64,000 bases of DNA from Uloborus plumipes (Eukaryota; Arthropoda; Arachnida; Araneae; Uloboridae). A program made the translations under genes and the position numbers. The stretch lies in assembly GCA_038373865.1 (NCBI GenBank), contig JAXGGA010002920.1:1-64000 (forward strand). Direction: 5' to 3'. The notes below the pieces were generated by a model. The model was not told the origin of the DNA. It searched no databases and was given only the letters and a program-made list of their open reading frames with translations. Shown here in pieces: positions 3,750 through 64,000 of this stretch. Position 1 is the first letter of the stretch, and the number at the start of each line of letters is the position of its first letter.

Positions 3750-3753
3750 TTAA

Positions 3754-3960
3754 CCTTTTGGATCCGGGCTGTTCATATAGAAATATTTCTTTCGACCCAG
3801 GTAGTACGACAGCTGAACCATACATTTCTTTTCCATTGAAAAGAGAAGGTATAAACTCGTATCAGACGTATGAAGCCTTGAAAAAATCCCCCCCAAAGGG
3901 TTCGAGAGAAAATTTCAACCCCGTCCTCTAAGAAAAAATGTACCACCCGGTTCCTAAAGG
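3754..3960 (+). mobile_element. TTAA-flanked MITE, copy 1 of 3 (piggyBac-type)
   Basis: A 207-bp element bounded by TTAA on both sides (3750-3753, 3961-3964). The ends are imperfect inverted repeats, CCTTTTGGATCCGGG on the left and the complement of CCTTTAGGAACCGGG on the right. It matches the elements at 33308-33539 (same orientation) and 42435-42665 (opposite). It has no transposase. In the other two copies a GGTACACATG-type palindrome lies 16 bp inside one end; here only its first half (GGTAC) remains. TTAA targeting suggests mobilisation by a piggyBac transposase. Confidence 0.8.
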
Positions 3961-3964
3961 TTAA

Positions 3965-14930: not shown

Positions 14931-16323
14931 CACTGCTCGACATTGAAAATGCAACACCAAGAAGGAGTGGTCAGAAATTCATGCAAATTTTACCGTAGAC
15001 GCACGTCACAGAGTTATGCAAATAATATGAAATGCGCAGCTCTCCGACGCACGTGAAGTAAGATATAAGAGAATGAAGTTGAAAAGTGGGCTATGTTCAT
15101 GTTGGTTTTTCTGCCAGACTAATTATCGGAGAAATTTGGTTTTTGTCTCAAAGGATACGTGTGATAGGAGGAAATGCCACGCCGTCCTCAACGAAGACAC
15201 TTCCAGCATATAGACGACTTTACAAGGGGTATGGTGATCGGACTGAGAAGGGAAGGTTGGTCCATACGTCAAATTGCAGCTGATACCCACATGGATGCAA
15301 GCACTGTGCATCGGCTGTGTCGGAGATGGTTGGAAAGAGGAAATGTAGCCACATTGAGGGGTGCAGGTGCAGCCAGAGTGACGTCAGACCGCTTGGATCG
15401 ACGGATTCACCGACAAGCTGTGGCGGACCCGCAAGTCACTTGTACGTCGATTCTGCAGCACGTGCAAGGTACCCTGGATGTTCCTGTGTCGACCAGAACC
15501 ATTTCCCGTCGACTGGTTGCACGTGGCCTGCAATCACGGCGCCCGCTAAGAAGACTGCCATTGACCTCACAGCACAGACTCCAACGTTTGGAATGGTGCC
15601 GGACCAGAGCGACGTGGATGGCAGAATGGCAAACCGTAGTGTTCTCAGATGAATCCCGCTTCTGTTTGTCCAGCGATAGTCATCGCATACGTGTGTGGCG
15701 TCGACGTGGAGAAAGATCGAATCCGGCAGTAACTGTGGGACGCCCCACAGCGCGACAACGTGGCATAATGGTTTGGGGCGCTATTGCATACAATTCCGTA
15801 TCACCTCTAGTTCGTATTCGGGGCACTATGACGGCCCAACGATATGTAGATAATGTACTGCGGCCGGTGGCAATCCCCTACCTTCAGGGTCTGCCAAATG
15901 CAATTTTTCAACAGGATAACGCCCGGCCTCACAGTGCTCTAATCAGCCAACATGCTCTACGAGGTGTACAGATGCTTTCCTGGCCACCATACTCTCCTGA
16001 CTTGTCACCAATCGAACATGTGTGGGACGCGATTGGACGCCGTTTGCAGAACCTGTCACTGCCTCGTTCAGAGGACGAACTGTGGCAAATGGTTGAAAGG
16101 GAATGGAGTGCCATCCCTCAGGACACCATCCGCAGGCTTATTGACTCCATGCCTAGACGTGGTCCTACTTCTTACTGAGCCGACACCGTCCTCGCTCTAA
16201 ATTTTGCTTATTTATTTTGAAATAAATATCACTTATTTTTCCATGCTGTCTCTGTCTTCTTACCAAATTTCATCAATTTCTGACCACTCCTTCTTGGTGT
16301 TGCATTTTCAATGTCGAGCAGTG
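14931..16323 (+). mobile_element. Intact Tc1/mariner-type element with 49-bp TIRs
   Basis: Terminal inverted repeats of 49 bp (14931-14979 and 16275-16323) start CACTGCTCGACATTGAAAAT and match along their full length. TA lies outside both ends (14929-14930, 16324-16325), the standard Tc1/mariner target duplication. The element is 1393 bp and carries one open transposase frame. Intact ends and frame indicate recent arrival and possible activity. It sits inside the 7.8-kb element at 10186-18011. Confidence 0.95.
15174..16178 (+). CDS. Tc1/mariner-family transposase, 334 aa
   Basis: Catalyses cut-and-paste transposition of the element that contains it; it would act in the nucleus on the 49-bp ends. 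Residues about 10-60 form a helix-turn-helix DNA-binding region (GWSIRQIA, STVHRLCRRW), followed by a second basic HTH region to about residue 130. The catalytic domain shows the DDE triad: D159 in VVFSDESRF, D248 in FQQDNARPH and E281 in DLSPIEHVW. The last two are separated by 32 residues instead of the 34 of typical Tc1 enzymes. The ATG at 15174 opens a clean frame to TGA; length fits the usual 330-350 aa. The GC-richer sequence stands out from the AT-rich surroundings. Confidence 0.95.
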   Translation: MPRRPQRRHFQHIDDFTRGMVIGLRREGWSIRQIAADTHMDASTVHRLCRRWLERGNVATLRGAGAARVTSDRLDRRIHRQAVADPQVTCTSILQHVQGTLDVPVSTRTISRRLVARGLQSRRPLRRLPLTSQHRLQRLEWCRTRATWMAEWQTVVFSDESRFCLSSDSHRIRVWRRRGERSNPAVTVGRPTARQRGIMVWGAIAYNSVSPLVRIRGTMTAQRYVDNVLRPVAIPYLQGLPNAIFQQDNARPHSALISQHALRGVQMLSWPPYSPDLSPIEHVWDAIGRRLQNLSLPRSEDELWQMVEREWSAIPQDTIRRLIDSMPRRGPTSY

Positions 16324-22992: not shown

Positions 22993-23245
22993 GACTATAA
23001 CAGCGTTTCCCAATCTTTAAGCTTACGCACCGCTTGGTTGTACACCATGCTAAATTGTACCACTTCTAAGAAATGATTATATTTCGTGATTTTTTTTTTT
23101 TTTTTTTGCGTTTGTGTTGTACATTTTATTGGGTGACCATGTACTTACATCAGCATAATGAGAGAAAATCCACTGGAATATGCCTAAACGAAACGTCATG
23201 CTGAATTATAAACTCGATGAAATTATAAATTCACTGCATCATATA

Positions 23246-24463
23246 CACTGAAGTGACAAAAGTCATGGGATACCTCTTAATATCGTGTCGGCCCTCCTTT
23301 TGCCCGGCGAAGTGCAACAACTCGACGTGGCATGGACTCAACAAGTCGTTGGAAGTCTTCTGCAGGAATATTGAGCCATGCTGTCTCGATAGACGTCCAT
23401 AATTGTGAAAGCGTTGATGGGGCAGGATTTTGGGCACGAACAGACCTCTCGACGGTGTCCCATAAATGCTCAATGGGATTCATGTCGGGCGATCTAGGTG
23501 GCCAAATCATTCGTTGGAATTGTCCAGAATTTTCTTCAAACCAATTGCGAACAGTTGTGGCCCGGTGACATGGCGCATTGTCATCCATAAAAATCCCATC
23601 GTTGTTTGGGTACATGAAGTCCATGAATGGCTGCAAGTGATCTCCAAGTAGCTGCACATAAGCATTTCCAGTCAATGTTCGGTCCAGTCGCACTAGAGGA
23701 CCAAGTCCATGCCATGAAAAAACAGCCCACACCATTACGGAGCCACCACCAGCTTGAACAGTGCCTTGCTGACAGTTTGGGTCCATGGCTTCGTGGGGTC
23801 TGCGCCACACTCGAACCCTACCATCGGCTCTTACCAGCTGAAATCGTGACTCATCGGACCAGGCCACGGTTTTCCATTCATCTAGGGACCAACCGATATG
23901 CTCACGTGCCCACGAGAGTCGCTGCAAGCGATGTCGTTCTGTCAGTAAAGGCACTCGAGTCGGTCTTCTGCTGGAATAGCCCAAGAAATCCAAATTTCTC
24001 CGCACAGTTCTAGCAGACACGTCCATTGTACGTCCCACATTGATTTCTACGGTGATTTGACGCAGTGTTGCTTGTCTGTTAGAATTTACGACTCTTTGCA
24101 GACGTCGCCGGTCTCGATCTTTAAGTGCAGGCGGTCGACCACTGCGCTGTCCATGGTGGGATGTTATGCCTGAAATTTCATACTCTCGGCACACTCTTGA
24201 CACAGTGGATCTGGAAATGTTGAATTCTCTAACGATTTCCGTAATGGCATGACCCATGCGTCTAGCTCCAACTAACATTCCGCGTTCAAAGTCTGTTAAT
24301 TCACGTCGTGCGGTCATCATCACGTTAAAACCTCTTCACATGAATAACTTGAACAGAAATGAAAGCTCTGTAAAAGCACTGCGCATTTATACCTGTTCTA
24401 TGCGATGCTACTGCCATCTGAAAATTTGCATATTGCTATCCCATGACTTTTGTCACTTCAGTG
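23246..24463 (-). mobile_element. Intact Tc1-like element, copy A
   Basis: Inverted repeats of 27 bp (23246-23272 and 24437-24463) starting CACTGAAGTGACAAAAGTC, with TA on both sides. At 1218 bp it is nearly identical to copy B at 62664-63875, which is 6 bp shorter. It carries an open transposase on the minus strand. High identity and intact ends suggest recent transposition. Confidence 0.95.
23277..24320 (-). CDS. Tc1-like transposase, 347 aa (copy A)
   Basis: Cut-and-paste transposase of the surrounding element. I place the start at the ATG at 24320 (protein begins MMTARRELTDFERG); a GTG just upstream extends the open frame but is an unlikely eukaryotic start. Two helix-turn-helix regions occupy about residues 8-60 and 65-120, with a GRP linker (GQRSGRPPALK) between. 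The DDE triad is D156 (AWSDESRF), D247 (IFMDDNAPCH) and E284 (DMNPIEHLW). The D-E gap is 36 residues, longer than the 34 of canonical Tc1. The frame ends at TAA, 5 bp from the inner edge of the 27-bp repeat. Copy B differs by about seven residues plus a two-residue deletion. Confidence 0.95.
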   Translation of the reverse strand: MMTARRELTDFERGMLVGARRMGHAITEIVREFNISRSTVSRVCREYEISGITSHHGQRSGRPPALKDRDRRRLQRVVNSNRQATLRQITVEINVGRTMDVSARTVRRNLDFLGYSSRRPTRVPLLTERHRLQRLSWAREHIGWSLDEWKTVAWSDESRFQLVRADGRVRVWRRPHEAMDPNCQQGTVQAGGGSVMVWAVFSWHGLGPLVRLDRTLTGNAYVQLLGDHLQPFMDFMYPNNDGIFMDDNAPCHRATTVRNWFEENSGQFQRMIWPPRSPDMNPIEHLWDTVERSVRAQNPAPSTLSQLWTSIETAWLNIPAEDFQRLVESMPRRVVALRRAKGGPTRY

Positions 24464-24850
24464 TATATATTTATGTATGTGTTTATTCAAAGTTTCGTGT
24501 TTCTCTATTACTTTTCCATATTTTGTTACTAATAAATGGTTTCAATTAAAAAAATATAGAAAAAACATTTATAAAAGCCAATTAATTTGTTCTCATATCA
24601 TAATCAAATAATTTTCATAATATATTCAATGTGATCTTTATGCTTGCTTCGAAGAACGTAATCTTTTAAAATTTACCGATGACTAACATCCAAATTTAAA
24701 AGTGCACTCAAAAATCACCATTTATTTTTCGCGTACCACCAACTAGCACGTCGGGTACCACCAATGGTGCGCGTACCACAGATTGGATAAAGCTGGACTA
24801 TAATGACCAAAGATCCCAACCATCCACTCGTCCCCGAGGTGACTCATAAC

Positions 24851-29224: not shown

Positions 29225-31595
29225 AAAAAAAGGAAAAAGGTGAAGGAAATGAAATCTCTTCCCAAAGTGTATAGGGATCTTTTGCATTCAAAAGCTTAAT
29301 CACTGTCAAAAAGTTTTTAAGAGCCGTTTTTTTTAAGAATCGGGGGCAGTCAAAAAACTTGACATTTTTGATTTGGCTGAAAATTTCAGAATATGGTCTT
29401 TATTTAAAATTATTAAATACGTGTTTCTTTATTTTTTCAAAAAAAAATTTTTCTTTCCGTTTTGGGAGGTCAAATTTGGACTTTGCTCTTTTTTTCAATA
29501 AAAACGTGCCAACTTAGATGAGCCAATACTTTTTGCTGAGGGAGTGAACCGTGGAATTGACAATTATTTTGTGTTCTACTATATCCCCTATAACTGTAAG
29601 TACATAAATATTTGTGGACGACTCTTGGCGCAAAGGTCAGAGGTCACTCAAAGTTGTACGAAAAATAGTTTTTTAATGCAACTTTGACCGACCAAATCTT
29701 CTTGTGGAAACGGTGCACCACGGTAGTGTATATATCAGTAAATACCCACCAAAGAGTAGTATCCAAAAACATAAAGATATGTGTGGTTGATATTTTGCAC
29801 ATCGATATATTTGACTCTGAAATTGCAGAAATCGCAAAATCACGTAACTTTGAGGATTATTATCTCCTTGCACCATGAGGGACCAGATACAAAACTAGTT
29901 GGAGTAGAAGCCTTTCTTGTCCCAGAAACACAATCCGTTAACAAACCTATGGCTACTCTTTCAGTTTTTGCATAATTTGGCTCTAAACTTTGAAAAATGA
30001 GTGTTTTTCGGCGTTAAGAAAAAAGGCCAATTACCTGTTTTAAAATATGTATTGCTATTATTTGTAACTATTATATCCCAACTTCCTTTCTTGCTGAAAT
30101 GGCATCTAAAGATGGTTATACAGTTGAAACCAAATTGAAAATGAATTCTGGAAAATACTCAGTATACGTCAAAAACTATACTTTTTTATTTGTTCAGGCG
30201 AAGTTTTTTTTTTTTTTGTTTGTTACAGCTCTTTATTCCGTTCGGTTCCAACATGGTAAGTAATTTATGTACTTCTTGTCGTTCTAGTTGCTGTAAAACT
30301 GGAAAGTAATGTATCTAAAGTCTGATATAAAGTAATTTCTCTTGTCATATCAAGTTTATAATGTAAAAGAATATTTTGAAATGGATAATTAGACCTAATC
30401 TAAAAAAAAAACTTACTTGTTCAGCTGCGCCCTCTTGCTCGATGTCATGACTGTCATCAAAAATTTCCAGACCTGCACCGAGGGGCTTTAATGTACCAAG
30501 ATTTTTAAGAAGTGACATTCTGCTAAAGAGAACATTTACTTTCCAGTTTTACAGCAACTGGAATGACAAGAAGTACATAAATTGCTTACCATGTCGGAAC
30601 CGAATGGAATAAAGAGCTGTAACAAGAAAAACGTCGCCCGGACAAATAAAAAAGTATGGTTTTTGACGTATACCGAGTATTTTCGAGAATTCATTTTCAA
30701 TTTGGTTTCAACTGTATAACCATCTTTAGATATCATTTCAGCTAGTTAGGAAGTTGGGATATAATAGTGCTACAAATAATAGCAATACATATTTTAAAAC
30801 AGGTAATTGGCCTTTTTTCTTAACGCCGAAAAACACTCATTTTTCAAAATTTAGAGCCGAATTATGCAAAAACTGAAAGAGTAGCCATAGGTTTGTAAAC
30901 GGATTGTGTTTCTGGGACAAGAAAGGCTTCTACTCCAACTAGTTTTGTATCTGGTCACTCATGGTGCAAGGAGATAATGACCCTCAAAGTCACGTGATTT
31001 TGCGATTTCTGCAATTTCAGAGTCAAATATTTCGATGTGCAAAATATCAAACACACATATCTTTATGTTTTTGGATACTACTCTTTAGTGCGTATTTACT
31101 GATATATACACTACCGTGGTGCACCGTTTCCACAAGAAGATTTGGTCGGTCAAAGTTGCATTAAAAAACTATTTTTCGTACAACTTTGAGTGACATCTGA
31201 CCTTTGCGCCAAGAGTCGTCCACAAATATTTATGTACTTACAGTTAGTGAGGATATAGTAGAACACGAAATAATTGTCAGTTGTATGCTACAAAAGCAAA
31301 AAGTATTGGCTCATCTAAGTTGGCATGTTTTTATTGAAAAAAAGAGCAAAGTCCAAATTTGACCTACCAAAACAGAAAGAAAATTTTTTTTTGAAAAAAA
31401 AAAACACGTGTTTAATAATTTTAAATAAAGACCATATTCTGAAATTTTCAGCAAAATAAAAAATGTCAAGTTTTTTGACTGCCCGATTCTTAAAAAAAAG
31501 GCTCTTAAAAACTTTTTGACACTGATTAATCTTTTGAATGCAAAAGATCCCTATACATTTTGGGAAGAGATTTCATTTCATTCACCAATTTTCTT
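29225..31595. repeat. 2.4-kb inverted repeat with a unique 219-bp centre
   Basis: The left arm (about 29225-30312) and right arm (about 30532-31595) are reverse complements over roughly 1.07 kb with scattered substitutions and small indels, for example the shared block CACAAATATTTATGTACTTA. The centre (about 30313-30531) is not duplicated and carries an exon-like piece (30417-30518). No target duplication could be fixed because the outer ends fade into A-rich sequence. Foldback transposition and inverted duplication of a local segment are both possible. Confidence 0.8.
30417..30518 (-). other. Exon-like 34-codon open segment in the inverted-repeat centre
   Basis: From the ATG at 30518 the minus strand reads MSLLKNLGTLKPLGAG and continues through LEIFDDSHDIEQEGAAEQ, then meets a consensus splice donor: CAA followed by GTAAGT at 30416. 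The composition is more gene-like than its surroundings and the segment ends on a codon boundary. It may be a first coding exon captured by the repeat or belonging to an unrecognised gene. I recognise no family. No downstream acceptor or continuing exon was identified. Confidence 0.35.
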
Positions 31596-31641
31596 ACAAA
31601 AACAAGAAACAGATTGACAGTCACTGATCGGGAAGATTTAA

Positions 31642-33018
31642 CCCCTTCGGCCCTGGCGTTCTATTATTAGAACAAATCTTCCTAATGCTCTACATTCTTC
31701 CTTTTTAAGAATTTTAACTTCAAAATCCAGTGGCTTACTCATAATACATGTAAGAATTCATATATGGTAACATTTTTGCTCAGTAGATTTCAGCATGTGT
31801 TCTGCAGAGAAGATAATGTCGGTTTCTCACCACTTGCAGCAAAAAGGTAAATGCAGCTTTTATTATTTCTCAAAATGCTACTATATGTAATTCCCTGGAC
31901 CTAATGAAAATTCCACAGCACCAAATAGACTCTTTATGACCAGTTTAGTACTTTTAATGAAAAAAATAACTGTAAATAGAATTGTTAATACGATTTTTAT
32001 ATCTGTTCTACTAATAGGACATCAGGCCTTGGAGCACAAATGGCCTATTCTTCATGTTCTATTAAGAGTACATCAGGTGCTTAGTAGTGCTAAAATCATG
32101 TTTTGTTTTAAAACAAAACACTACTTTCTGTTAAATTATTGCCTCATGACTATAGTTTTTATGTTTTAATTAATTTATTGAATAAGTAGATGCATATTAT
32201 TGTCTGTTTATATCAAATTACGCACGCTGAAATACATTTCTATTTGCTTAGCCAATATGAGAAGTAAAAAGTTGTCCTTGTTGGAAGCCATTCAGTGCCT
32301 AAATAGTCTGGATGATTCTGATTTAGAAGATGTAGACTTAGATGGGTCTGATGATGAATGGCAGCCATCAAATTATGATTTGCCGCACTTGTAACCTGAT
32401 GAAGAGAAAGATTCCACTATTTCAGTATGGCTATAACAAACTCTTGGTTAGAGTATAAACAGGATGCCGCTTCGTTAGGAATTACATGTAAAGATCAAAT
32501 GGATTTGCCCGATTTCACGTTTGATGTAGCAGAAACGTTGGCATTCGCAAAACAAGCAACAGCTGCTACTAAACGTGGGAGGCCATCAGAAAATAGTCCT
32601 GTTGTACCACCAGCAAAGAAAAAACTAAACCCAGCTGTTAGACCCTGTGGAGATGTGAGGTATGATTTAATAAATCACATGATTGAGAGAAGTTCGAAAC
32701 AGCAGAGGTGCAAATTAGAAGGTTGCACCTATAAAACAACTTCTTATTGTGAAAAATGTGAAGTGTATCTGTTTTCATGTGCAAAGGAATTGTTTCAAAA
32801 AATTTCACACCAAATAAGTGCAAATATACTTAGAAATAAATGTTCTCTTTTTTACTTAATAACAGCCTGGTGTCCTACTATTAGAACACTTTTTAATTAG
32901 TTTCGTAATTGGTAGAATCTCATAATATTACATATTTAGCATATTTACATGCATTATAGCATATATAACCACTCATTGAATTTTTATCTACCCAATTAAA
33001 AATTCAGGGCCGAAGGGG
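31642..33018 (+). mobile_element. piggyBac-type element, internally deleted
   Basis: TTAA flanks both sides (31638-31641, 33019-33022). The ends CCCCTTCGGCCCTG are perfect 14-bp inverted repeats. A 16-bp palindrome, GTTCTATTATTAGAAC, lies 16 bp inside the left end (31658-31673). A variant, GTCCTACTATTAGAAC, lies 131 bp inside the right end (32872-32887). Two more variants occur at 32004 and 32056. The same 16/131 spacing is found in the piggyBac element at 46479-48141. Remnants of both transposase ends remain, but the catalytic core is gone. Confidence 0.93.
32257..32900 (+). pseudogene. piggyBac transposase, N- and C-terminal remnants
   Basis: The first part, from the ATG at 32257, reads MRSKKLSLLEAIQCLNSL and an acidic stretch (SDLEDVDLDGSDDEW), as in piggyBac N-termini, and stops at 32392. 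In another frame the C-terminal part follows: WLEYKQDAASLGI, MDLPDFTFDVAETLAF, then the cysteine-rich tail RCKLEGCTYKTTSYCEKCEVYL, which matches the CRD that binds internal repeats in piggyBac enzymes. Roughly 400 or more residues with the catalytic aspartates are missing between them. The tail also drifts out of frame after CEVYL. Confidence 0.85.
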
Positions 33019-33307
33019 TTAATTGCTATTTCTCACATAAATAACGTCCGGGGTTTCCCCCCGCGGTTTATGAAAAGAATAAGTTCTAAATACGTGATTG
33101 TCAGACATTTTGATTACGTAAAGGGAAGGAATGGGGTGAAGGGGCTCTCTTACAATAATTTTTTGAAACTGTAGATTCCAAAATCGCAATTCAGGCTATG
33201 GCAAAAAATATTAGAAAGAGGACGGTTAAGGGTTCTCCGAATTTTTTTTCAATTGAAATTTATTTATGTTTTTTCTTTTAACATTGAGAAAACAAATTTC
33301 TTATTAA

Positions 33308-33539
33308 CCTTTTGGACTTGGGCTGTTCATATAGAAATTTTTCTTTCGACCCAGGATTTACGACAGTTGAAGCACAGATTTCTTTTCCATTGAAAAGAGA
33401 AGGTATAAATTGTCCTAACAGACGTATGAAACCTCAAAAAAATCCCTGGCTCCAAAGGGTTTCGAGTGAAAGTGTCAACCCCGCCCTCTAATGAAAAAAG
33501 ACTTATGGTACAACATGTGTACCGCCCGGCTCCTAAATG
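33308..33539 (+). mobile_element. TTAA-flanked MITE, copy 2 (piggyBac-type)
   Basis: A 232-bp element with TTAA at 33304-33307 and 33540-33543. It aligns with the copy at 3754-3960 along its length. Sixteen bases inside the right end is a 17-bp palindrome, GGTACAACATGTGTACC (33507-33523), matching the layout of the two larger piggyBac elements. No coding capacity. Confidence 0.85.
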
Positions 33540-33543
33540 TTAA

Positions 33544-34651
33544 GTAAAAACTGAAGAAAGTCATTTAATTTTCTTTCCGTCCCAAGCTTACGTCTCCGCA
33601 TTCTCATCAAGACAGAAATCCGTCTTGAGACGGAAGGTCTTGCATCCATGATGACCATCCGTACCACAGGGAGTACAGCTGGACCCTACACAGGTGCACC
33701 TTTCCCACCCCTCTTTCTCTGTAAGCAATCAGCCCCACCTGTTATACCGGATTTGTGAACTCTCCCTATTGACACTGGAATGCTGGTGGAATTTTTCATA
33801 CAAAAGTATTGAACCGAAGGGGGAAAAAAGATAAAACAGGAATAAGACTAGAAAGATGAGAAAAATAGACTGTGAGACAGAAAAAATTGCTCGTTAAAAC
33901 CGGGTCTTGCTCGTTAAAAAAAATTCTGTTCCATAGACTTAACATTGATCCAATCATATATTCTTGTTTCCTTCGTTAAATCGGGGTTCTCGAATCAGGG
34001 TTCTCGTTGTAAACAAGTTCCACTGTAATAGGCTTGTGTTGATTTTAAAGGTTCAGTGTAATTTGTGAAGTGCACGTAGGTCAAAGTGAAATAGTTCATT
34101 TCGTTTGCTAATGCCTTCATTTACTAAATCACGCACGTATTTCTGCATTCATTAATATATTCATATTCTTTTACTTATTACTTCACGTATTTACCCACTC
34201 ATTCTCCTATTTTATTATTCATTTTGTTTTATTCACTCATTTCTTTTTCTCATATAATAATTCGATTGTTCGTCTATTTATGTGTGCGTTTATTTTTTCA
34301 TTAATGTTTCAGTTATTCGTTTATTTACGCATTCATTTGATGAAAATTACTGTAAATCATCAAACAGAAAATGCTTCATTACAAAAATATTTTATTTTTC
34401 ACTTTGCTCCATGGTTTTTTAGGGTGAAAAATTTCCACCTTTTTTTGAAGGTGCGCAATAAGTGCAAAAAATCAAAAATAACATTTTAACGCTAGTTGCA
34501 TTACAAAATACATTATTCATCCTGTGTACACTGAATTACAGAACAAATTTCCAATTTGTTCATTTTGAAACAGGTCAGCTATTTCACTTTGCCCCTACTT
34601 TTTTATCCTAAAGATGAACTGCCTAGGATTGTTTTCTGCAGGGGGGGGGGG
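33544..34651. other. Non-coding stretch
   Basis: AT-rich, with TCGTTAAA repeats near 33890-33920 and a GTTCCACTGTAATA end near 34018 that suggest a worn pogo-like MITE. A G run is at 34641-34650. No gene recognised. Confidence 0.5.
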
Positions 34652-41838: not shown

Positions 41839-42721
41839 CAGGGTTCTCCAAAGCGGACGTAGCCCACTTGAAAAAAACCACTAAGTCGGTAAAGTGGGTT
41901 TTTTCAAAATTTGTTGCACATTGAAAATGTTTACTTTAGATACAAACTAAATGTTATAAATATTTTGATATACACTAAGCCTAGAAATTGGTATTGATCA
42001 ATTTAGTTATAATATTCAGTTTATTATAATATTTAGTCTTGATCAGTACCTGGTTTAGAAACTGACATCATCCTTTCCTGAGAGATTATTAGGTATTAAA
42101 AATCAAACTGCACGTGAATTTCACTTACTTTTTTTTTTAAAATACTTAAAAGATCAAAAAAAGCAATAATTATTTCAATCTATAAATTCAATTCAGTATC
42201 AATTAAAAATGTAACATCGATTTAAAAATTCAGTAATACAATGCTTTTTCAAAATTTGTTAAAGAAGTTTTTAGAAGGTCACAGTGACCTCTCTTTAGGT
42301 CTCCCCTGATTCTATGAAATGTAACAGTAGGTGCACAATGTTCAAGTAAAGAATATAAAAATGATTCTTGAAAAAACACGATAAAGCCCAGGTTTTTCAT
42401 CAAAAACACGAAAAAAAACTGGGTTTTTGATTAACCTTTAGGAGTCGGGCGGTACACATGCTGTACTGTAACTATTTTTTTTTTAGAGGACAAGGTTGAG
42501 ATTTTCACTCGAACCCTTCGGAGACAGGGATTTTTTCAAGGTTTCAAACGTCTGGTACGACAGTTTATACCTTCTCTTTTCAATGGAAAAGAAATCTGTG
42601 GTTCAACTGTCATATTACCTGGGTTGAAAGAAAAATTTCTAAAAAAACAGCCCGGATCAAAAATGTTAAAAACACAGGTTGGCTGGGCTCTTTAAAAAAA
42701 ACCCAGGTTTTTCAAACCCTG
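41839..42721 (+). repeat. CAGGGTT-family repeat, full copy with AGGTCA palindrome
   Basis: Begins CAGGGTTCTCCAAAGCGGAC and ends CAGGTTTTTCAAACCCTG, with the perfect palindrome AGGTCACAGTGACCT at 42276-42290. A TTAA MITE is inserted at 42435-42665. About 650 bp without it. No coding capacity and no clear target duplication. Confidence 0.75.
42435..42665 (-). mobile_element. TTAA-flanked MITE, copy 3 (piggyBac-type), inverted
   Basis: 231 bp with TTAA at 42431-42434 and 42666-42669. It is the reverse complement of the 3754 and 33308 copies. The end CCTTTAGGAGTCGGGC (16 bp) is followed at 42451 by the palindrome-like GGTACACATGCTGTACT. Confidence 0.85.
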
Positions 42722-46478: not shown

Positions 46479-48141
46479 CCCTTTAAATGCCGCACTATGT
46501 TTCAGGTATAAAAATTTGAGTTGCTGCATAAAAATAGGACTCTTAGGCATCCCTTTAGACAATGCAAAAAAAAATTAAAAAAAAAAAAATTATCTACGAT
46601 TTTGGGCATGTTCCCATTTGGGAACATTGGCATGTTACGTTAAGTTTTTCCTAGGGCTTTTAATCGATTGCGCTTTACGCTCTCTGTAGTTCTTTTGTAT
46701 TTATGCATAAAATGCTTTTTATTACTGATCATATTTGACAAATTCATTTCAATTTGAAACGTTAACATTTCAAAACATAAAAAAAAAATATGCACTTTAT
46801 AAACAAATATTGTCAAACAAATGTGTCCTTTTAATCAACACCCAATTGTTCTCCTTTCTGCATTGAATATAGTTCTGTCATTTTCGATAAATGACCCAAA
46901 TATTCAATTGGTAAAAATTTGTGGAAAATTTCAACCGGCGATAAATTTGCCAATTCTGGAAATGACTCAGAGTTTTTTATGGGTTTTCGTTTCTATAGTT
47001 TCATCAAAAGATGCATTTTTTCTCCAGTTAATTTCTTTTTTAGATGATTTTCTCTTTCTCTTGGATTTTGGAGAAGCTTCCGAGGTACATGGGGTATCAA
47101 TAATCGTCTCGTCATCCGATACATTGTTTGGTGATTTGCGGGTGACTACTTCTATTTGTCTGCAAACATCAGCAGGAACAACCCTATCAAATTCATTGTC
47201 ATTAACATCTTCTTCATCTGTTATTGCCCCGGTCTCATCTGGTGGTAATTGGCAAATGTCTAGTACAGAATCTGCTGATTCACCTGAGTCTGATAGGGCT
47301 TGAAACGATTCAATAGCTTCTTACAAAGTTAAAAACTTTTCTCTGGAACCCATTCTTTCTACGACTTCTAACAACACTGTCGCGATCACTTCTAGCGAAA
47401 CAGAAAGCGAAACCTCCATATGGAGGGAGAAAAAGAGTGAAAACATTGATTGGGGGCCGAATCTCTGGACAGTCTCAAGTGTAAAGGAAGGGATATTTAT
47501 TGCTAACAGGTTGTAGCCTGAGCGGGGTGCAAGAGAAAAGCTGTAAACATCTTCATTTCTAGCGATTTTTCGACATCACTCCCACCCAATAACTGGAGAC
47601 GAGGGGGGAGGGGGCAAAAAGGGGAGCAGTGGAAGGTCGAAAGGCCACCCACTTTCTTTTTCAATGCGTCGAATGAGGTTGTTTTCAATTCCAAGGCTTT
47701 CAATGATCATATAACCAAACTTAGGAAGCGGCGTGAATTACCTGATTTTGTATAGCGTTACTTGCTAATGTTCCCAAATGGGAACAACGAAGTTTGATCG
47801 CTTATAGGAGCTACATTTTTGCTTTAATTTTTTATTTGTCATGTTAGGTCATTAAAAGGATCCTTATTTATGGTTACTTTAGAATATCAAAAAAATTGAA
47901 TCTTTTTGAAATTTTTTAGAAATTTTTTTTTCTGTCTCCGAAAAATCCATAAAAAAGCACATTTTTGCGATTTTTTATAGAAAACAATAATTGTAGTAGC
48001 TAACTAGATTTTTTTTTCAAAAAATCAGGTCTACTTTTGACAGTAAATAGAAAAATAAAATTAAATCCTCAGAAGCGAAACTTTTTTTTAACGATTTTTT
48101 AAAGTTGATGTTCCCATTTGGGAACATTGGCAATTAAAAGG
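46479..48141 (-). mobile_element. piggyBac-type element, internally deleted (in SNW1 intron)
   Basis: TTAA flanks both sides (46475-46478, 48142-48145). The ends CCCTTTAAATGCC and the complement of CCTTTTAATTGCC are inverted with a few mismatches. The palindrome GTTCCCATTTGGGAAC lies 131 bp inside the left end (46610-46625) and 16 bp inside the right end (48110-48125); a third copy is at 47770-47785. Transposase remnants run on the minus strand, so the 16-bp offset is at the transposase 5' side, as in the 31642-33018 element. Confidence 0.92.
46820..47354 (-). pseudogene. piggyBac-type transposase, N-terminal remnant
   Basis: From an ATG at 47354 the minus strand reads MGSREKFLTL, an in-frame TAA, then EAIESFQALSDSGESADSVL, an acidic stretch (ETGAITDEEDVNDNEFDR), CRQIEVVTRK, a lysine-rich stretch (KSKRKRKSSKKE) and NWRKNASFDETIE. 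This is the layout of PGBD2/3-like N-termini leading to the dimerisation region. The frame is lost near 46985 and the catalytic core is missing. No function is expected. Confidence 0.78.
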
Positions 48142-48189
48142 TTAAATTATAAAGTTTGAATACTAAAGGCTAAATTATATTATATATTG

Positions 48190-48575: not shown

Positions 48576-49155
48576 TATCAAAAGATAAAATTCATGTTCT
48601 TTGCAAACATAAAAGTAATATATTTAATGCTATTATTAATACTAACGGCTAAACTATACTACATGTTGATGTATTTTAGTGCACGTTTTCGTAACGGATA
48701 TTCAACAGTTTTGAAAAATCAGAGGGAAATCAGTTGGAGTATCATGAAAATATAATTTAACCTTTAGTATTAATCATAGTATTGAGTACATTACTTTTAT
48801 ATTTGTGAAGAACTACTTTATCAAATTGTCTAAGAGCGTATTTTTTAGTTTTTTTTTTAAAACTATAATTAATTATTTTTGCTGTTTTTCTTGTAATCAA
48901 ATCCAGAACATTTTACCAGTGCCCTGTTTTTGGAATTTTGTGAATAATAGTTACGGATAGAAATATTCCCGATCCCTTTTGAATTTTGGACTTCTGGGAA
49001 GAGTCTGTTCTTTGAGTTTCTGAATTTTGTGAATGGTCCGCCAACGGATCTAAATTCTTTCTAAAATGACCCTTGATAGCAAACTAAATTGCATGCAGTT
49101 ATCTCTGAAGTGAACTACTATTGAACTCTCATAAAACTTGGTTATAACATTTTAA

Positions 49156-49187
49156 CCTGTTACTGCCCAGTGATCTATTTATGGATC
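49156..49187 (+). repeat. Orphan piggyBac-type terminus
   Basis: After TTAA (49152-49155) come CCTGTTACTGCCCAGT (16 bp) and then the near-palindrome GATCTATTTATGGATC (49172-49187). This has the same 16-bp offset as the complete TTAA elements in the window. No matching opposite end was found, so it seems truncated. Confidence 0.5.
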
Positions 49188-51000: not shown

Positions 51001-51819
51001 TACCTCAACATTTGGCGACAATTTCTCTTTCACAAAAGTGATAATACCACGGAGTAGAAAGAAGGAGAGAAATGTTCTACGGATGCGCTAGTTTGAAAGT
51101 GGCAACGAATTCTCACACGCCCGCCAGAGGACGCTAGCTGAAACGCTCCCTACTTCCTACGGGTTTCAATGTAAATGATACTGAATCTGTCCTCTCTTTA
51201 AATGCTGCTATGGGAAAGAAAAAAAATTTTTTTCAACTGGATTTTGATGTAAATCTTCGACTGACATTATGAATTAAGTATGATTTTCATCCCACGAAAA
51301 TAGGAGCCGTATTTTTTGAGAAATAGGTTTAATCGAATGCACTTACCAACTTGTCAAATCTGACAGAATCTGTCATTTTTTAAAGACTGCTGTTGGTAAG
51401 AGTTTTTTTTTTTTTTTTTCAACTGGATTTTGGTGTAAATCTTCGATTGACATTATGAACTAAATATGTTTTTGAAGCTTTCTAAATTGTGATAAATTAT
51501 GCATGTGGCAAAAAATTAATTATGTCGGTACTTATTTTTTTTATTAATTAAAAATATTTAGTAGACAAAATAATTATTATAGACTATATTTTCATATTAC
51601 CTTCTTTTTTACATGTTCATATTTTTATTTAATTACCATTTGTAATCAGTAATTGAAAAATTTATTTATTCATTATTATTATTTTTCTTCGTTTTACCTA
51701 ATAATAGGAAATTTTATATTTACATAATTTTTACAATTAAAAATATATTCATTGGCTTAATTTTCGAATTTTTTTTATCTTTTTTGCTTAAACCTAGACT
51801 AATATAATGTATCTCTAAC

Positions 51820-52323
51820 CAGGGGTGCCCTCAGGGGGGGAATTATGACGCATGTTGCGCCATAAAAATTTTTGGGGGGATTTTTTAAAGCTAATTAATT
51901 AATTAATTTATTTATTTAAATTATTGATTAATTTATTTTTAATTAAAATTATGGGCTGATTTGTTTTGAATAAAAATTATTCATTAATTAATATTTTTAA
52001 TCCACATTTTTTTTTTCTTTATTATTTTATTTATTTATTTATTTATTTTGTGTGCGTGTGAGTGTGCTTGGAATGTCTGGAAAAGAAAAAAAGCGATTCT
52101 GTTCTACGTATAATTAGTATTTTTAGAAAAATAATAATAAATAAAAAAATAATATTTACAATTTAAAAAAAATAAACAAATATTTAAAAAAAATAAATAA
52201 TATATTAAAAAATAAATAAAATAAAAAAGAGGGGTAAAAAAATAAAAAGCACAAGAGGGTTGGGAAACATTTTGGGGAGGGGGGGATTTGCGCCATTGAG
52301 CTTGGGGGGGATAGGCACCCCTG
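51820..52323 (-). mobile_element. hAT-type MITE with TCTCTAAC duplication
   Basis: TCTCTAAC lies directly on both sides (51812-51819, 52324-52331). Ends CAGGGGTGCCCTCAGG and the complement of CAGGGGTGCCTATCC are inverted. 504 bp, very AT-rich, with TTAAT and TTTA microsatellite tracts. A counterpart from the other palindrome arm is at about 54146-54590. Confidence 0.9.
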
Positions 52324-52575
52324 TCTCTAACCCCGTTTAAAATACACAAAAATCATATTTTAAGACTTAAAAATTCTTTCCAGAAATTTTTGTCTCTGAA
52401 TTTTTCCTCTGTGTCCTTGCTTCAAATTTTTTTATTATGTTCTTTTTTCATTTAAGATCTGAAATTGACATTATGAATTAAATGTGTTTATTCCCACGGA
52501 AGTGAGTGCCGTATTTTTTAAGTGATTTTTTAATTGGAGATAGTCGTAAAAGCTTAAATTATGATACAAAATATA

Positions 52576-52751
52576 TTTGACGCTCGTTATAGTGACCACT
52601 CGTTATAAAGGCTCCCAATATTACGACCGGGGGGAAGCCCCCCCCCCCCAACTTTATCCCAATATACTCTATGTTCTACCTCTTATAGCGACGACTCGTT
52701 ATAAAGATCTTTTTGTGGGACGGAGATGGTCCTTATATCGAGCGTCGACTG
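52576..52751. mobile_element. pogo-like MITE in the left palindrome arm
   Basis: Ends TTGACGCTCGTTATAGTGAC and the complement of CAGTCGACGCTCGATATAAG, with TA at the right. Repeated CTCGTTATAA units. A counterpart lies in the right arm (53411-53590). Confidence 0.7.
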
Positions 52752-53410
52752 TAGTATAAATTTCGTCATTTCTATTTTACATGCAGTTTTTCTTATAAAT
52801 GGCAGTGACCAGGACCGTCACTAAATCACGAAAGTCAGGGAGTGTAAAAAATCGGCTGCCCCTAAAGTAGTTCATTATTATTATTTTTCTTAGTTTTTAC
52901 CTAATAATAGGAAATTTTATATTTATATCATTTTTGCAATTAAAAATATATTAATTGGCTTAATTTTTGAATTTTTTTCTTCTCTTTTGCTCAAATCGAA
53001 TAAGTTTTAAGCCATTTGTGCCTAACCTATGGTCTGTGAGCCAAATGGTGTGTTTATTATTATTATTATTTCAACGTATATAATTATTTGTTATATATTA
53101 TTAATTTTTTTTAAATTTTAATATTATTTTTTAAACATATTATTTTCTTTTTTTTTTTTAATATATTATTTTCTTTTTTTTAACCTATTATTTTCTTTTA
53201 TTTTTAAATTATAACTATTATTTCTTATTTAAAAAATTCTGTGCTACGCCACTGAAAGTTATCATTTTATCATGACTAAAATACGTTTGAACTACTTTAG
53301 GGGCAGCCGATTTTTTACACTCCCTGACTTTTTTGATTTAGTGACGGTCCTGGTCACTGCCATTTATAAGAAAAACTGCATGTAAAATAGAAATGACGAA
53401 ATTTATACTA

Positions 53411-53590
53411 CAGTTGACGCTCGATATAACGACCATCTCCGTCCCACAAAAAAGATCTTTATAACGAGTCGTCGCTATAAGAGGTAGAACATAGAGTATA
53501 TTGGGATAAAGTTGGGGGGGGGGGGGTTCCCACCGGTCGTAATATTGGGACAGTCTTTATAACGAGTGGTCACTATAACGAGCGTCAACT
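53411..53590. mobile_element. pogo-like MITE in the right palindrome arm
   Basis: Reverse complement of 52576-52751, beginning CAGTTGACGCTCGATATAAC with TA at 53409-53410. Both copies were presumably present before the arm duplication. Confidence 0.7.
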
Positions 53591-53837
53591 ATATTTTGTA
53601 TCATAATTTAAGCTTTTTTACGACTATCGCCATTTAAAAAATCACTTAAAAAATACGGCACTCACTTCCGTGGGAATAAACACATTTAATTCATAATGTC
53701 AATTTCAGATCTTAAATGAAAAAAGAATGATAAAAAAATTTGAAGCAAGGACAGAGAGGAAAAATTCAGAGACAAAAATTTCTGGAAAGAATTTTTAAGT
53801 CTTAAAATATGATTTTTGTCTATTTTAAACGGGGTTA

Positions 53838-54138
53838 GGCAGGGATTCAAGTGAAACAGGTCATCGCAAATTACAATCGCTACTGGAAATGAATTACATT
53901 AGAACGTTTCTTGATAAAAACATCGTGGCGTCAGCGTGACGTTTGCCTATGAAAAACGAGCTAGATAAAACGTCACAGCCTACTTGGCGAATAAGAGGAG
54001 ATCGCTGAGTGCTTGTGAGCTCTTATTGGCTCCACCCGTAGTGACGTCATGCCAAGTTAAGTTGATGATAATGTAATTACTTCCAGTAGCGATTGCAATT
54101 CGAAGCGATCGCAGTGCTGCTTCACTTGAATCCCTGCC
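53838..54138. mobile_element. Harbinger-like MITE with TTA duplication, copy 2
   Basis: 301 bp, same family as 18421-18711 in inverted orientation. TTA flanks both sides (53835-53837, 54139-54141). The left palindrome arm at about 52326-52336 retains the unoccupied site (TCTCTAACCCC), which independently fixes the borders. Confidence 0.92.
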
Positions 54139-54145
54139 TTAGAGA

Positions 54146-54590
54146 CAGGAGTGCCCATCCCCCCCAAGCTCAATGGCGCAAATCCCCCCTCCCCAAAATG
54201 TTTCCCAACCCTCTTGTGCTTTTTATTTTTTTACCCCTCTTTTTTATTTTATTTATTTTTTAAAATATTATTTATTTTTTTTTTAAATATTTGTTTATTT
54301 TTTGAAATTGTAAATATTATTTTTTTATTTATTATTATTTTTCTAAAAATACTAATTATACGTAGAACAGAATCGCTTTTTTTCTTTTCCAGACATTCCA
54401 AGCACACTCACACGCACACAAAATAAATAAATAAATAAATAAAATAATAAAGAAATAAAAGAACTAATGTGGATTAAAAATATTAATTAATGAATTATTT
54501 TTATTCAAAACAAATCAGCCCATAATTTTAATTAAAAAATAAATTAATCAATAATTTAAATAAATGAATTAATTAATTAATTAGCTTTAA
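54146..54590 (+). mobile_element. hAT-type MITE, right-arm counterpart (one end missing)
   Basis: Reverse complement of 51820-52323, starting CAGGAGTGCCCATCC. The opposite terminus is lost: sequence goes from AATTAGCTTTAAAAAAAC straight to the ACTCTTGCCAACAGCAG block, so a deletion removed that end and the adjacent arm sequence. Confidence 0.75.
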
Positions 54591-54900
54591 AAAAACTCTT
54601 GCCAACAGCAGTCTTTAAAAAATGACAGATTCTGTCAGATTTGACAAGTTGGTAAGTGCATTCGATTAAACCTATTTCTCAAAAAATACGGCTCCTATTT
54701 TTGTGGGATGAAAATCATACTTAATTCATAATGTCAGTCGAAGATTTACATCAAAATCCAGTTGAAAAAAATTTTTTTTCTTTCCCATAGCAGCATTTAA
54801 AGAGAGGACAGATTCAGTATCATTTACATTGAATCCCGTAGGAAGTAGGGAGCGTTTCAGCTAGCGTCCTCTGGCGGCGTGTGAGAATTCGTTGCCACTT

Positions 54901-55777
54901 TTAGATAGCAGAGATTTAGCTCCTCCCCTTTAACCTCCTTGGATAATACGTTTGTTTATTTATGGAAAGCATAGGGGTTCAGAATTATCCAAGGTATCCC
55001 AAATTAGCTACCAAATTGGCGACTTTTTAAATAGCGCCAAGAATCTTCAATAATTGAAATTTTCCAAGGTGCGTTGCTATGCAACTATTTTTGTTTTCGA
55101 GAGTAGAAAAAATTATTTGTGTATGGTAAATACCTGATTAAATATGTTTCCTTCTCAGACAAATATATTATTGCATGACAGTACTCAAATGCTACTATAT
55201 TTTTTAAGGTGTTTGCTTTTTCATGTCTGTAATATTTGTCATTAACAGCAATGTCAAAAATTATTAACGACGTACGGAATGGTGGGTATTGAGCACCAAA
55301 TAGGTCATTGAAATTGTGTTCAGACTTGCAAATAATATATTCATGCTTGCTCAAATTGTGCCACACGTGCAAAATTTATGGAACTCATTTCTTCGCATTA
55401 GATATTGTTAACTTTTTAGTTTTTATTTTCCTCAATTAGAGGGTGAAATATCTTTTAAGACTAAAAAGCGTTTTTGCACCCTGCAGATCGATTTTAAAAT
55501 AGTTGGAAATGAATGTAAACATTGCATCACGGTTATGACGTCACTCAAGCATTTTTGCGTCATAGGAACTGGTTATTTTGAACCGAGTCATTTCGTTCCT
55601 ATTTAATCGCGGTTATGAGATTTTTTGAAAAGTTTCTTGTGGTTTGGCAACTGAAAACTAATTTACATGTTAGGTTGTTTTGGAATGCACATGGGAGCAT
55701 AAAAGGCTCTAGCAAAGTTTTTTCGGGCTCTTCTCTCAATGCTCGTTTCCCCGTGTGTGTTGTTCCGTGTTGTCTCT
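54901..55777. other. Intronic stretch between palindrome and hAT element
   Basis: Contains the right copy of the direct repeat noted at 50810-51000 (about 55190-55345). The rest is AT-rich with no recognised feature. Confidence 0.5.
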
Positions 55778-60974: not shown

Positions 60975-62663
60975 TCAGGCCTCTCCAATTACATATTCAT
61001 ACTCATATACCCAGTGGCAGAAAGTTTTGTAGCTGTCTGCGACAAACTTTGACAATTTCCTTTTCTGTCTGCAAATTTTGAGTGGAATTTTAATATACTA
61101 GTCATATATTAAACAAGTATAATTTAATTATAACTATAATTTGTAGCACTTTATTTAAAATATTGTAAGCATCATGTATTCTTTTTCATTTTGTTTTTTA
61201 CTTTTGATGATAGGGGTGTGTGACATGCGGTCTGTAAGTTATGACCTGTTGAGCATGCCACTCAAAAAAGAAAAAAGAACAGATGAAATTCTGATAAAAG
61301 ATTTCAAAAAGAAAGGCTTCTAAAAACTTCTCTTACTTTTTTCACAGGAGAAAACAAGATTGGTACAAAATGATAAAAAAGTTTAAACTTAATATTGGGT
61401 TTCCACCATAGGTTTGCATCCTAATCACTTATCCAGGTTATGAAACTCATTGTTTCAGTATATAATGATTTTTTTTTTCTATTTGTTCCATTAGCTATTT
61501 CATTAATCTTCTAAAATTCTATTTGGATATCTTTAGCACTTTTTGAGGTTTTAATTTTTTATTTCATTTTTTTTTCGTAAGAGCTGCTGCATTATAAACA
61601 TGGTTTAAGACAAGACATTTTTAACTGTGGTTATTCTAATGAAATCAAAAAGATTTTTTTATTAAAATGTCCAGAATAATTTAGAAATTAAGACAAAAGT
61701 GTATTGAGCTGTTTTCGCAGGTATTATCAGGTCACAAATTTTGAATTTGATAAATATTTTAAAGAAAAAAAAGGGTAGACTTTAAATTAGGACTTAAAAG
61801 AAAGGGCACTACCAGTGATCAAACTATTGGTTTTTTTTTTGATCCATTGAACATAAATTAAAATCTTTTTTAAAAAAATGGAGATTTTTCTTTTTTGACT
61901 TTCTGTGTTTTAAAAGTCACAGAAAAAAAAAGAATAAAATTGCTATGTGCATAAAGATCGGTGGTAGAGGGGGGGGGGGGGGGTGACCTATAAATTTGGC
62001 AAAAATTCACTTTACACCAAATGTAGAGAAGCCAATTTTCTAAGCATGAATCCAACAAAAATCAACTTTGTTAATAAAGCAATAAAGCAACGATTGATTT
62101 TATCGGGGGGGGGGGGAGGGGGAAGGAGATGCGATGCAAATAAATGAAGAAAGTTCAGCTTTCTCTTGAACAAAAACATAACAGTAGTGAAATATAATAT
62201 GCCTGCTCTGAAGTTTGAAAAGGCAAAGTCAAATTTCGGGCGCTATGTTTGTCCATGGTACAAAGAAATCTTGCAATTTTTTTTTTCACAGAAAAACGGA
62301 CAAAAATCGAAGGGGGAGGATAGATATCATGCAAATGAATGAAAAATAAAATGTAGCCGTATCTCAAATAAAAAATAACCCCAGTGAAATAAAACAAGCG
62401 AAGAAAGGTTTCAGGCGCCATGTTTGGCCACAGCACATTTTTTTTTTCCCGTAACACATTTTTTTTTCTCCCAGCGGCTAAATGGGGAGGAAAAAGAAGC
62501 TCCTAAGTCAAAGCATGCTCAAGAGGGGGAAAAATTGGCCGAAAGTTGCAGACAACTTTTCTAAGTTGTTTTCATTAGTGCAGACAAAAACTGTCTGCAA
62601 GAGGGTTTCACTGGTGGCGACGATGTCGCCGTGTCGCGGTGTTTCTGCCACTGGGCTCATATA
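60975..62663. other. Non-coding stretch with G runs and a diverged tandem repeat
   Basis: G runs at about 61969-61983 and 62105-62114. A block with ATGCAAATAAATGAA, ACAGTAGTGAAATATAAT and GGGCGCTATGTTTG (about 62115-62260) recurs in diverged form at about 62325-62425, a period of roughly 200 bp. No SNW1 exon or other gene recognised. Confidence 0.5.
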
Positions 62664-63875: not shown

Positions 63876-64000
63876 TATTACATAATATAAATTGCTGGAA
63901 CAACTAAACTCATTGTATTGGAGAAACATCTCAACTCTGAGAAATTTTAGAATTTTCATTTTTCAAGCTTCTTTCAACTAGATATTGAACTTCTGTTGTT

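What the first reader, a model, noticed from the sequence alone, without database searches (positions are those of the whole stretch)
31642..33018. piggyBac-type ends with a palindrome at fixed 16-bp and 131-bp offsets
In this element a 16-bp palindrome (GTTCTATTATTAGAAC) starts exactly 16 bp inside the 5' end, and a variant ends exactly 131 bp inside the 3' end. The element at 46479-48141 has an unrelated palindrome (GTTCCCATTTGGGAAC) at exactly the same offsets, in the same orientation relative to its transposase remnant. Known piggyBac (IFP2) has a 13-bp TIR plus 3-bp spacer before its 5' internal repeat, also 16 bp, and a longer 3' spacer. The sequence shows the spacing; that these palindromes are transposase binding sites is inference.
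Basis: partly seen in the sequence, partly recalled or inferred. Interest (0 to 1): 0.75.

Follow-up and report, generated by a model that had tools for sequence, protein, structure and literature searches.

The report
Three-site PGBD3-type piggyBac transposon ends
Two broken jumping genes carry three copies of a short mirror-image DNA word at nearly fixed distances from their tips, a layout already seen in a human relative (PGBD3) and shared by other families in the same genome whose words have changed while the distances have not.

Summary
In detail: both TTAA-flanked elements have a 16-bp palindrome 16 bp inside the 5' end and another ending 131 bp inside the 3' end. The palindromes are not unrelated: both are GTTC-N8-GAAC, the type of the human PGBD3/MER85 palindrome GTTCCAtTAtTGGAAC, published in 2012 at three places in PGBD3 with binding data. 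E1's transposase remnant matches tick proteins named PGBD3-like.

In the window's own genome I measured 11 such families. Ten have palindromes at 16, at about 360 (348-366) and at about 132 (129-135) from the 3' end; the eleventh is degenerate. The letters differ (eight half-sites in ten families) and the sequence between sites mostly shows no similarity. Most sites also repeat the inner part of the terminal repeat. The exact match at 131 is partly luck: four other E2 copies have 134-135.

So these are new members of a known kind. The part I found in no paper searched is the tip-anchored three-site geometry that persists while the recognition word changes. Binding and function are inferred from PGBD3, piggyBac and piggyBat.

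The parts
31638..31641 (.). E1 left TTAA target-site duplication
31642..33018 (+). E1: PGBD3-like piggyBac deletion derivative (1377 bp)
   Evidence: of 30 loci with its palindrome (window copy included) 24 have a recognisable 3' end, 18 of them 1376-1384 bp long
31642..31655 (+). E1 5' terminal inverted repeat, 14 bp
31652..31674 (+). E1 site 1: TIR-inner flank + palindrome (palindrome 31658-31673)
32004..32026 (-).
32056..32071 (.). E1 weak fourth palindrome (414 bp from the 5' tip here, 417 in 18 of 30 loci)
32257..32394 (+). E1 transposase N-terminal remnant (45 codons and stop)
32403..32817 (+). E1 transposase C-terminal remnant with cysteine-rich domain; frameshift before the likely ancestral stop at 32815-32817
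32866..32888 (+). E1 site 3 (palindrome 32872-32887), ends 131 bp from 3' tip, direct repeat of site 1
33005..33018 (-). E1 3' terminal inverted repeat
33019..33022 (.). E1 right TTAA
46475..46478 (.). E2 TTAA (its 3' side)
46479..48141 (-). E2: second PGBD3-type element by its ends (1663 bp), transposase remnant on the minus strand
46610..46632 (-). E2 site 3 (palindrome 46610-46625), 131 bp from 3' tip
46840..47354 (-). E2 transposase N-terminal remnant, by eye (one in-frame stop, one frameshift)
   Evidence: no homologue found
47762..47785 (+).
48110..48132 (-). E2 site 1 (palindrome 48110-48125), 16 bp from 5' tip
48142..48145 (.). E2 TTAA (its 5' side)

Best explanation
E1 and E2 are broken, non-autonomous members of two PGBD3-type piggyBac families. 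Each palindrome, together with a short copy of the inner terminal repeat beside it, is most likely a complete binding site for one transposase dimer: the core domain on the repeat-derived flank and the paired C-terminal cysteine-rich domains (CRDs) on the palindrome. Site 1, at the 5' tip, would load the catalytic dimer. The 3' tip has only the short terminal repeat; a dimer on site 3, about 132 bp inside, would help bring it in. Site 2, about 360 bp from the 5' tip and upstream of the transposase start, is the mirror image of site 3 about the gene. It most likely tunes the system by holding an extra non-catalytic dimer that limits synapsis or represses the transposase promoter. Shown here: sites, orientation, distances, conservation, and the protein family of E1. 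Inferred: binding, stoichiometry, and the roles of sites 2 and 3.
For: Sequence: three sites in both elements. The published human PGBD3 palindrome GTTCCAtTAtTGGAAC lies 3 bp inside a 13-bp TIR, 59 bp upstream of the ORF, and 114 bp upstream of the 3' TIR (about 127 bp from the tip); the transposase binds it in gel shifts and ChIP (PMC3459987 passages). Protein: E1's C-terminus matches P0001 at 76% and two tick proteins named PGBD3-like at 47-48%; a profile of these with E1 matches piggyBat (5e-36) and piggyBac (4e-27) structures. Genome: 11 families measured. Site 1 palindrome with 5-8 of 8 arms paired in 10 of 11 (F37 is 17 bp long and is counted by eye). Sites 2 and 3 in 10 of 11, where the best match to the family's own site 1 was equalled in at most 1 of 200 shuffles. 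Spacers between families mostly show no similarity (55 pairs, median z 0.3 and 0.5, highest 5.6 and 4.1). Flank orientation: site 3 in 11 of 11, site 2 in 9 of 11. Arms covary: pairs 4/13 and 5/12 are paired in 27 of 27 sites of 9 families with 2 and 3 pair types. The mechanical first-ATG offset varies from 467 to 1870 while site 2 stays at 348-376. Dimer binding to motif plus palindrome is shown for piggyBac and piggyBat (PMC7351741, PMC11707139, passages); removing the third piggyBat left-end site raises activity about 6-fold.
Against: No binding or transposition was tested. MER85, with only site 1, reached 889 human copies, so sites 2 and 3 are not needed in cis for spread there; yet the amplified forms E1, E2 and F44 mostly keep all three, so the cis role is unsettled. 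Family F36 has a degenerate site 1 (3 of 8 arms paired), a site 2 only at p 0.015-0.02 with a surrogate query, and a site 3 that does not beat shuffles. Orientation is not uniform: by flank, site 2 is a tie in F35 and goes the other way by one base in F34_C360; by the whole 23-mer, site 3 favours the opposite orientation in F35 and F34_C360 and ties in F33, and site 2 the opposite in F34_C360 and F33. The inner arm pairs are weak (7/10 paired in 14 of 27, 8/9 in 8 of 27). In piggyBac the second right-end site repeats left-end bp 7-35, as I read it in the same inward sense (PMC7351741 passages), unlike site 3 here. Families sharing GTTGC half-sites (F33, two F34, F35, F39) are not fully independent.
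Confidence: 0.7

Rival explanations
1. Sites 2 and 3 act mainly as operators for expression (autoregulation of the transposase gene and its 3' processing), not in the transpososome.
For: Site 2 lies upstream of the first ATG of the open frame in 9 of 9 families, and in E1 and E2 by coordinates; the PGBD3 authors suggest autoregulation (PMC3459987); MER85 spread without sites 2 and 3.
Against: Distances are kept to the tips (about 360 and 132), not to the gene: the ATG offset ranges from 467 to 1870 (mechanical, introns not considered). Site 3 lies downstream of the stop in E1, F39 and F45. Sites also carry the terminal-repeat flank.
Confidence: 0.35
2. The sites are internal remains of older transposon ends (nested or captured TIRs), with distances kept by descent only.
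For: Sites repeat the inner half of the TIR plus the palindrome.
Against: In the 14 flank bases printed the outer part does not continue the terminal repeat in most families, by eye; whether a TTAA lies further out was not examined. Spacer sequence mostly shows no similarity between families while distance stays within a few percent.
Confidence: 0.08
3. The two elements match by coincidence of AT-rich palindromes.
For: E2 relatives have 134-135, not 131, so the exact equality is partly coincidence.
Against: 0 of 100 shuffles; the same layout in further families.
Confidence: 0.01

Closest known systems
Human PGBD3 transposon and MER85 (PMC3459987, PMC2268245, passages read)
   Same: TTAA duplications, 13-bp TIR, 16-bp palindrome GTTCCAtTAtTGGAAC 3 bp inside the 5' TIR, again upstream of the ORF and again 114 bp before the 3' TIR; E1's palindrome differs by one symmetric change (C-G to T-A at positions 5 and 12)
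   Different: Palindrome letters; 3' distance about 127 against 129-135; distance of the internal site from the 5' tip and orientation of the sites were not found in the passages read
piggyBat of Myotis lucifugus (PMC11707139, PMC13405395, passages read)
   Same: Composite sites: a short motif 3 bp before an imperfect palindrome, three copies; no palindrome on the right end
   Different: All three piggyBat sites lie within 120 bp of the left end; the motifs and their spacing differ
piggyBac IFP2 of Trichoplusia ni (PMC7351741, PMC3459987, passages read)
   Same: 13-bp TIR, 3-bp spacer, palindrome from bp 17; asymmetric ends; CRD dimer on the palindrome
   Different: Palindrome TGCGTaAAATTgACGCA; right-end site 31 bp inside the TIR instead of about 118; only two internal repeats described in the passages

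Membership tests
piggyBac superfamily | TTAA target-site duplication | tested here: met
   E1 and E2 both sides; also E1, E2, F39 and F45/F44 relatives, with a few decayed copies
piggyBac superfamily | Short TIR (about 13 bp) beginning CC | tested here: met
   E1 14 of 14; E2 11 of 13 by eye; retained families 11-12 of 13
piggyBac superfamily | DDE_Tnp_1_7 (PF13843) transposase | tested here: inconclusive
   Met in E1's relative P0001, in P0005 and in F39. The E1 and E2 remnants themselves have no piggyBac Pfam hit; the core is missing from E1 and E2
PGBD3/MER85 type | Transposase nearest to PGBD3 | tested here: inconclusive
   E1: two tick relatives named PGBD3-like by NCBI; no tree with human PGBD3 was built. 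E2: no homologue at E 0.001
PGBD3/MER85 type | 16-bp GTTC...GAAC palindrome 3 bp inside the 5' TIR | tested here: met
PGBD3/MER85 type | Second palindrome upstream of the ORF and third about 127 bp from the 3' end | tested here: met
   E1 363 and 131; E2 356 and 131; 131 is close to, not equal to, 127
PGBD3/MER85 type | Palindromes bound by the transposase | not testable with these tools
   Published for PGBD3 (PMC3459987 passages)
piggyBac IFP2 type | Right-end internal repeat 31 bp inside the TIR | tested here: not met
   131 bp from the tip in both elements

The most novel reading that the evidence does not exclude
PGBD3-type transposons keep a fixed three-site geometry (16 in; about 360 in, inverted; about 132 from the 3' tip) measured from the tips, while the recognition palindrome and the CRD that reads it evolve together like lock and key. 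Many families can then share one genome without cross-mobilising, and sites 2 and 3 form a mirror-image pair that brakes or gates synapsis.
Probability: 0.32. Interest if true: 0.66.

Novelty: new member of a known kind. Interest (0 to 1): 0.46.

Why it matters
It is unclear why piggyBac ends are asymmetric and why some carry inhibitory extra sites. One genome with ten families of the same geometry but eight different palindrome half-sites is a natural experiment. Spacing, orientation and CRD-palindrome matching can be tested by swapping parts between families, and the geometry shows where to look for accessory sites in PGBD3-type elements and relics, including human PGBD3.

Tried and rejected
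Scans of genome contigs and viral contigs with P0001 gave no relative. Pfam on the remnants gave no piggyBac hit. The E1 fragment alone found no transposase among solved structures. The protein search with E2's remnant found nothing at E 0.001. A structure prediction from a 5-row alignment had mean pLDDT 33.6 and was discarded. A 3' end for the 49152 element was sought and not found. Comparison of CRD identity with palindrome half-site identity over 10 families (E2 has no CRD) gave r 0.38, permutation p 0.015; it is not corrected for shared ancestry, so suggestive only. The rough clustering probability for site 2 assumes uniform independent positions and is not relied on.

Rows dropped: of 13 loci, C6023 and C6537 gave no credible end pair and were left out; C8775, C883, C10676 and C442 are second copies or close kin of families counted once. 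F37 (17-bp palindrome) and F36 (degenerate) were left out of the pair counts, leaving 27 sites of 9 families. For F36 the query was the 49172 window palindrome, not its own site 1. Many of the 102 matches were not examined for ends.

Full report
WHAT IS THERE. E1 (31642-33018) and E2 (46479-48141, minus strand) are flanked by TTAA on both sides and bounded by short inverted repeats. Each has a 16-bp palindrome starting 16 bp inside its 5' end and one ending 131 bp inside its 3' end. With up to 3 mismatches the window holds 8 matches to the E1 palindrome (1.30 expected) and 7 to the E2 palindrome (0.61 expected), and none of 100 shuffles reaches either number. GTTC-N8-GAAC occurs four times in 64 kb, all inside these elements.

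Each element has a third site: E1 32005-32020, 363 bp from the 5' tip, and E2 47770-47785, 356 bp from the 5' tip. The sites are longer than the palindrome. In E1 the flank CCTGRY, and in E2 TGCYAAT, precedes the palindrome at all three sites; this flank is the inner part of the terminal repeat. By this flank, sites 1 and 3 are direct repeats and site 2 is inverted. Sites 2 and 3 are therefore mirror images around the gene: palindrome towards the nearer tip, flank towards the gene. E1 also has a weak fourth palindrome, at 417 in 18 of 30 loci.

WHAT THE PROTEIN SAYS. E1's C-terminal remnant finds 6 proteins at E <= 0.001 among 264 candidates: one at 76% identity and five at 47-49%, two of them tick proteins named piggyBac transposable element-derived protein 3-like. 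A profile of the alignment of those six with the E1 remnant matches piggyBat and piggyBac structures. E1 lacks the catalytic core, and E2 keeps only an N-terminal part, read by eye. E2's remnant found no homologue at E <= 0.001, so E2's place rests on its ends and palindrome.

THE KNOWN PRECEDENT. PMC3459987 (passages read) reports for human PGBD3 and MER85 a 16-bp palindrome GTTCCAtTAtTGGAAC 3 bp inside a 13-bp TIR. In PGBD3 the same palindrome occurs again 59 bp upstream of the ORF and 114 bp upstream of the 3' TIR. Gel-shift and ChIP data show transposase binding. E1's palindrome differs from it by one symmetric base-pair change.

COPIES IN THE SAME GENOME. E1: 30 loci, the window copy (L145) among them, were fetched by exact match to site 1, so the presence of site 1 there is by selection; the exact-match list itself was cut at its display limit. 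In 29 of 30 it lies 16 bp from a TTAA-like site; L126 has a damaged repeat. Site 2 is present in 29 of 30, 22 of them at 363 and 7 at 345-362. A 3' end was found in 24 of 30. Site 3 is present in 22 of those 24: 18 at 131 and one each at 122, 127, 128 and 133. 18 of the 24 are 1376-1384 bp long, so they look like descendants of one deletion derivative and are not independent. E2: 6 further copies of 39 listed, chosen by 5' end similarity, have site 2 at 356-358 in 6 of 6; site 3 is at 134, 134, 135 and 135 in the 4 with a recognisable 3' end.

OTHER FAMILIES. A search with P0001 gave 102 matches. For seven families (F35, F36, F36c, F34_C4269, F34_C360, F37, F33) the ends were set by TIR pairing alone, without the palindromes. 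F39's 5' end was first flagged by its palindrome and then borne out by comparison of copies; F45's ends by copies at the 3' side and by TTAACCC plus TIR match at the 5' side. E1 and E2 came with the finding. Offsets (site 1 / site 2 / site 3 from the 3' tip): E1 16/363/131; E2 16/356/131 (other copies 134-135); F39 16/364/133 (133-134 in 8 of 8 copies); F45 with F44 16/360/129-131 (site 3 in 14 of 16 loci); F35 16/365-366/132; F36c 16/354/133; F34_C4269 16/357/133; F34_C360 16/348/132; F37 16/359/133 (17-bp palindrome); F33 16/356/132; F36 16 (degenerate)/376 or 363/131 or 129. In 10 of 11 families (6 of the 7 set by TIR pairing alone) the best match to the family's own site-1 palindrome falls at these places and is equalled in at most 1 of 200 shuffles; F36 fails for site 3 and is marginal for site 2.

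ORIENTATION. By the 10-base flank, site 3 has the direct orientation in 11 of 11 (F35 only 3 against 2) and site 2 the inverted one in 9 of 11 (F35 a tie, F34_C360 5 against 6). By the whole 23-mer, site 3 is direct in 8 of 11 (F35 and F34_C360 opposite, F33 a tie) and site 2 inverted in 9 of 11 (F34_C360 and F33 opposite). The rule is therefore strong in most families and open in F35, F33 and F34_C360.

WHY THE DISTANCES LOOK CONSTRAINED. Local alignment of the spacers between families is mostly at chance level (55 pairs each; median z 0.3 for the 5' spacer and 0.5 for the 3' spacer; highest 5.6 and 4.1, not examined further). The N-terminal transposase regions of 9 families (E1 and E2 not included) give local alignments at 23-45% identity over 60-237 residues. 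Palindrome letters differ but outer arms pair: of 27 sites in 9 families, pairs 1/16, 4/13 and 5/12 are intact in 27 of 27, with 1, 2 and 3 pair types; the two innermost pairs are intact in 14 and 8 of 27. The first ATG of the open frame, taken mechanically, lies 467-1870 bp from the 5' tip, while site 2 stays at 348-376. I read this as geometry anchored to the tips. A fixed distance from the tip to an unknown transcription start is not excluded.

MECHANISM. In piggyBac the core domains hold the first 16 bp and a CRD dimer holds the palindrome at bp 17-33 of one end (PMC7351741 passages). In piggyBat a GCGGGA motif 3 bp before a palindrome forms a dimer site; the left end has three, the right end has no palindrome, and removing the innermost left site raises activity about 6-fold (PMC11707139 passages). 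By analogy site 1 is the catalytic entry, site 3 an auxiliary site for the 3' end, and site 2 a tuning or repressing site. MER85 spread with site 1 only, which argues that sites 2 and 3 are not essential in cis. The amplified forms E1, E2 and F44 (apparently a shortened F45) mostly keep all three, which argues the other way or is neutral. None of this is tested here.

NOVELTY. The kind is known. In the search listings, and in the passages I read, I saw no paper stating the three-site geometry as a rule across families, or its orientation. Most subscription papers are not held, and the superfamily paper cited (PMC5381638) was not held. The CRD-palindrome correlation is suggestive only.

Noticed in passing
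49152-49187: A possible third PGBD3-like 5' end in the window: TTAA, CCTGTTACTGCCCAGT, then palindrome GATCTATTTATGGATC (6 of 8 arms) at offset 16, resembling family F36; no matching 3' end found.
   Followed up: partly
3750-3964, 33304-33551, 42423-42669: Three copies of a TTAA-flanked repeat of roughly 210-250 bp with ends like CCTTTTGGATCCGGGC and CCTTTAGGAACCGGG (some diverged) and a 16-bp palindrome CTTTTCCATTGAAAAG not at offset 16; perhaps another piggyBac-like MITE.
   Followed up: partly
23243-24468 and 62659-63878: Two inverted copies, 98.9% identical, carrying a mariner/Tc1-like transposase frame (named by eye, not searched); a different Tc1-like frame lies at 15168-16178.
   Followed up: no
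51096-54901: Nested inverted repeats at 96-99% identity (314, 458 and 561 bp pieces), as of a long foldback element.
   Followed up: no
29233-31593: Inverted repeat of about 1.1 kb at 92.7% identity ending 48 bp before E1.
   Followed up: no
31642-33018 and 46479-48141: The 3' spacer plus the 5' spacer add up to 147 bp (131 + 16), equal to the nucleosome core length (recalled); may be coincidence.
   Followed up: no
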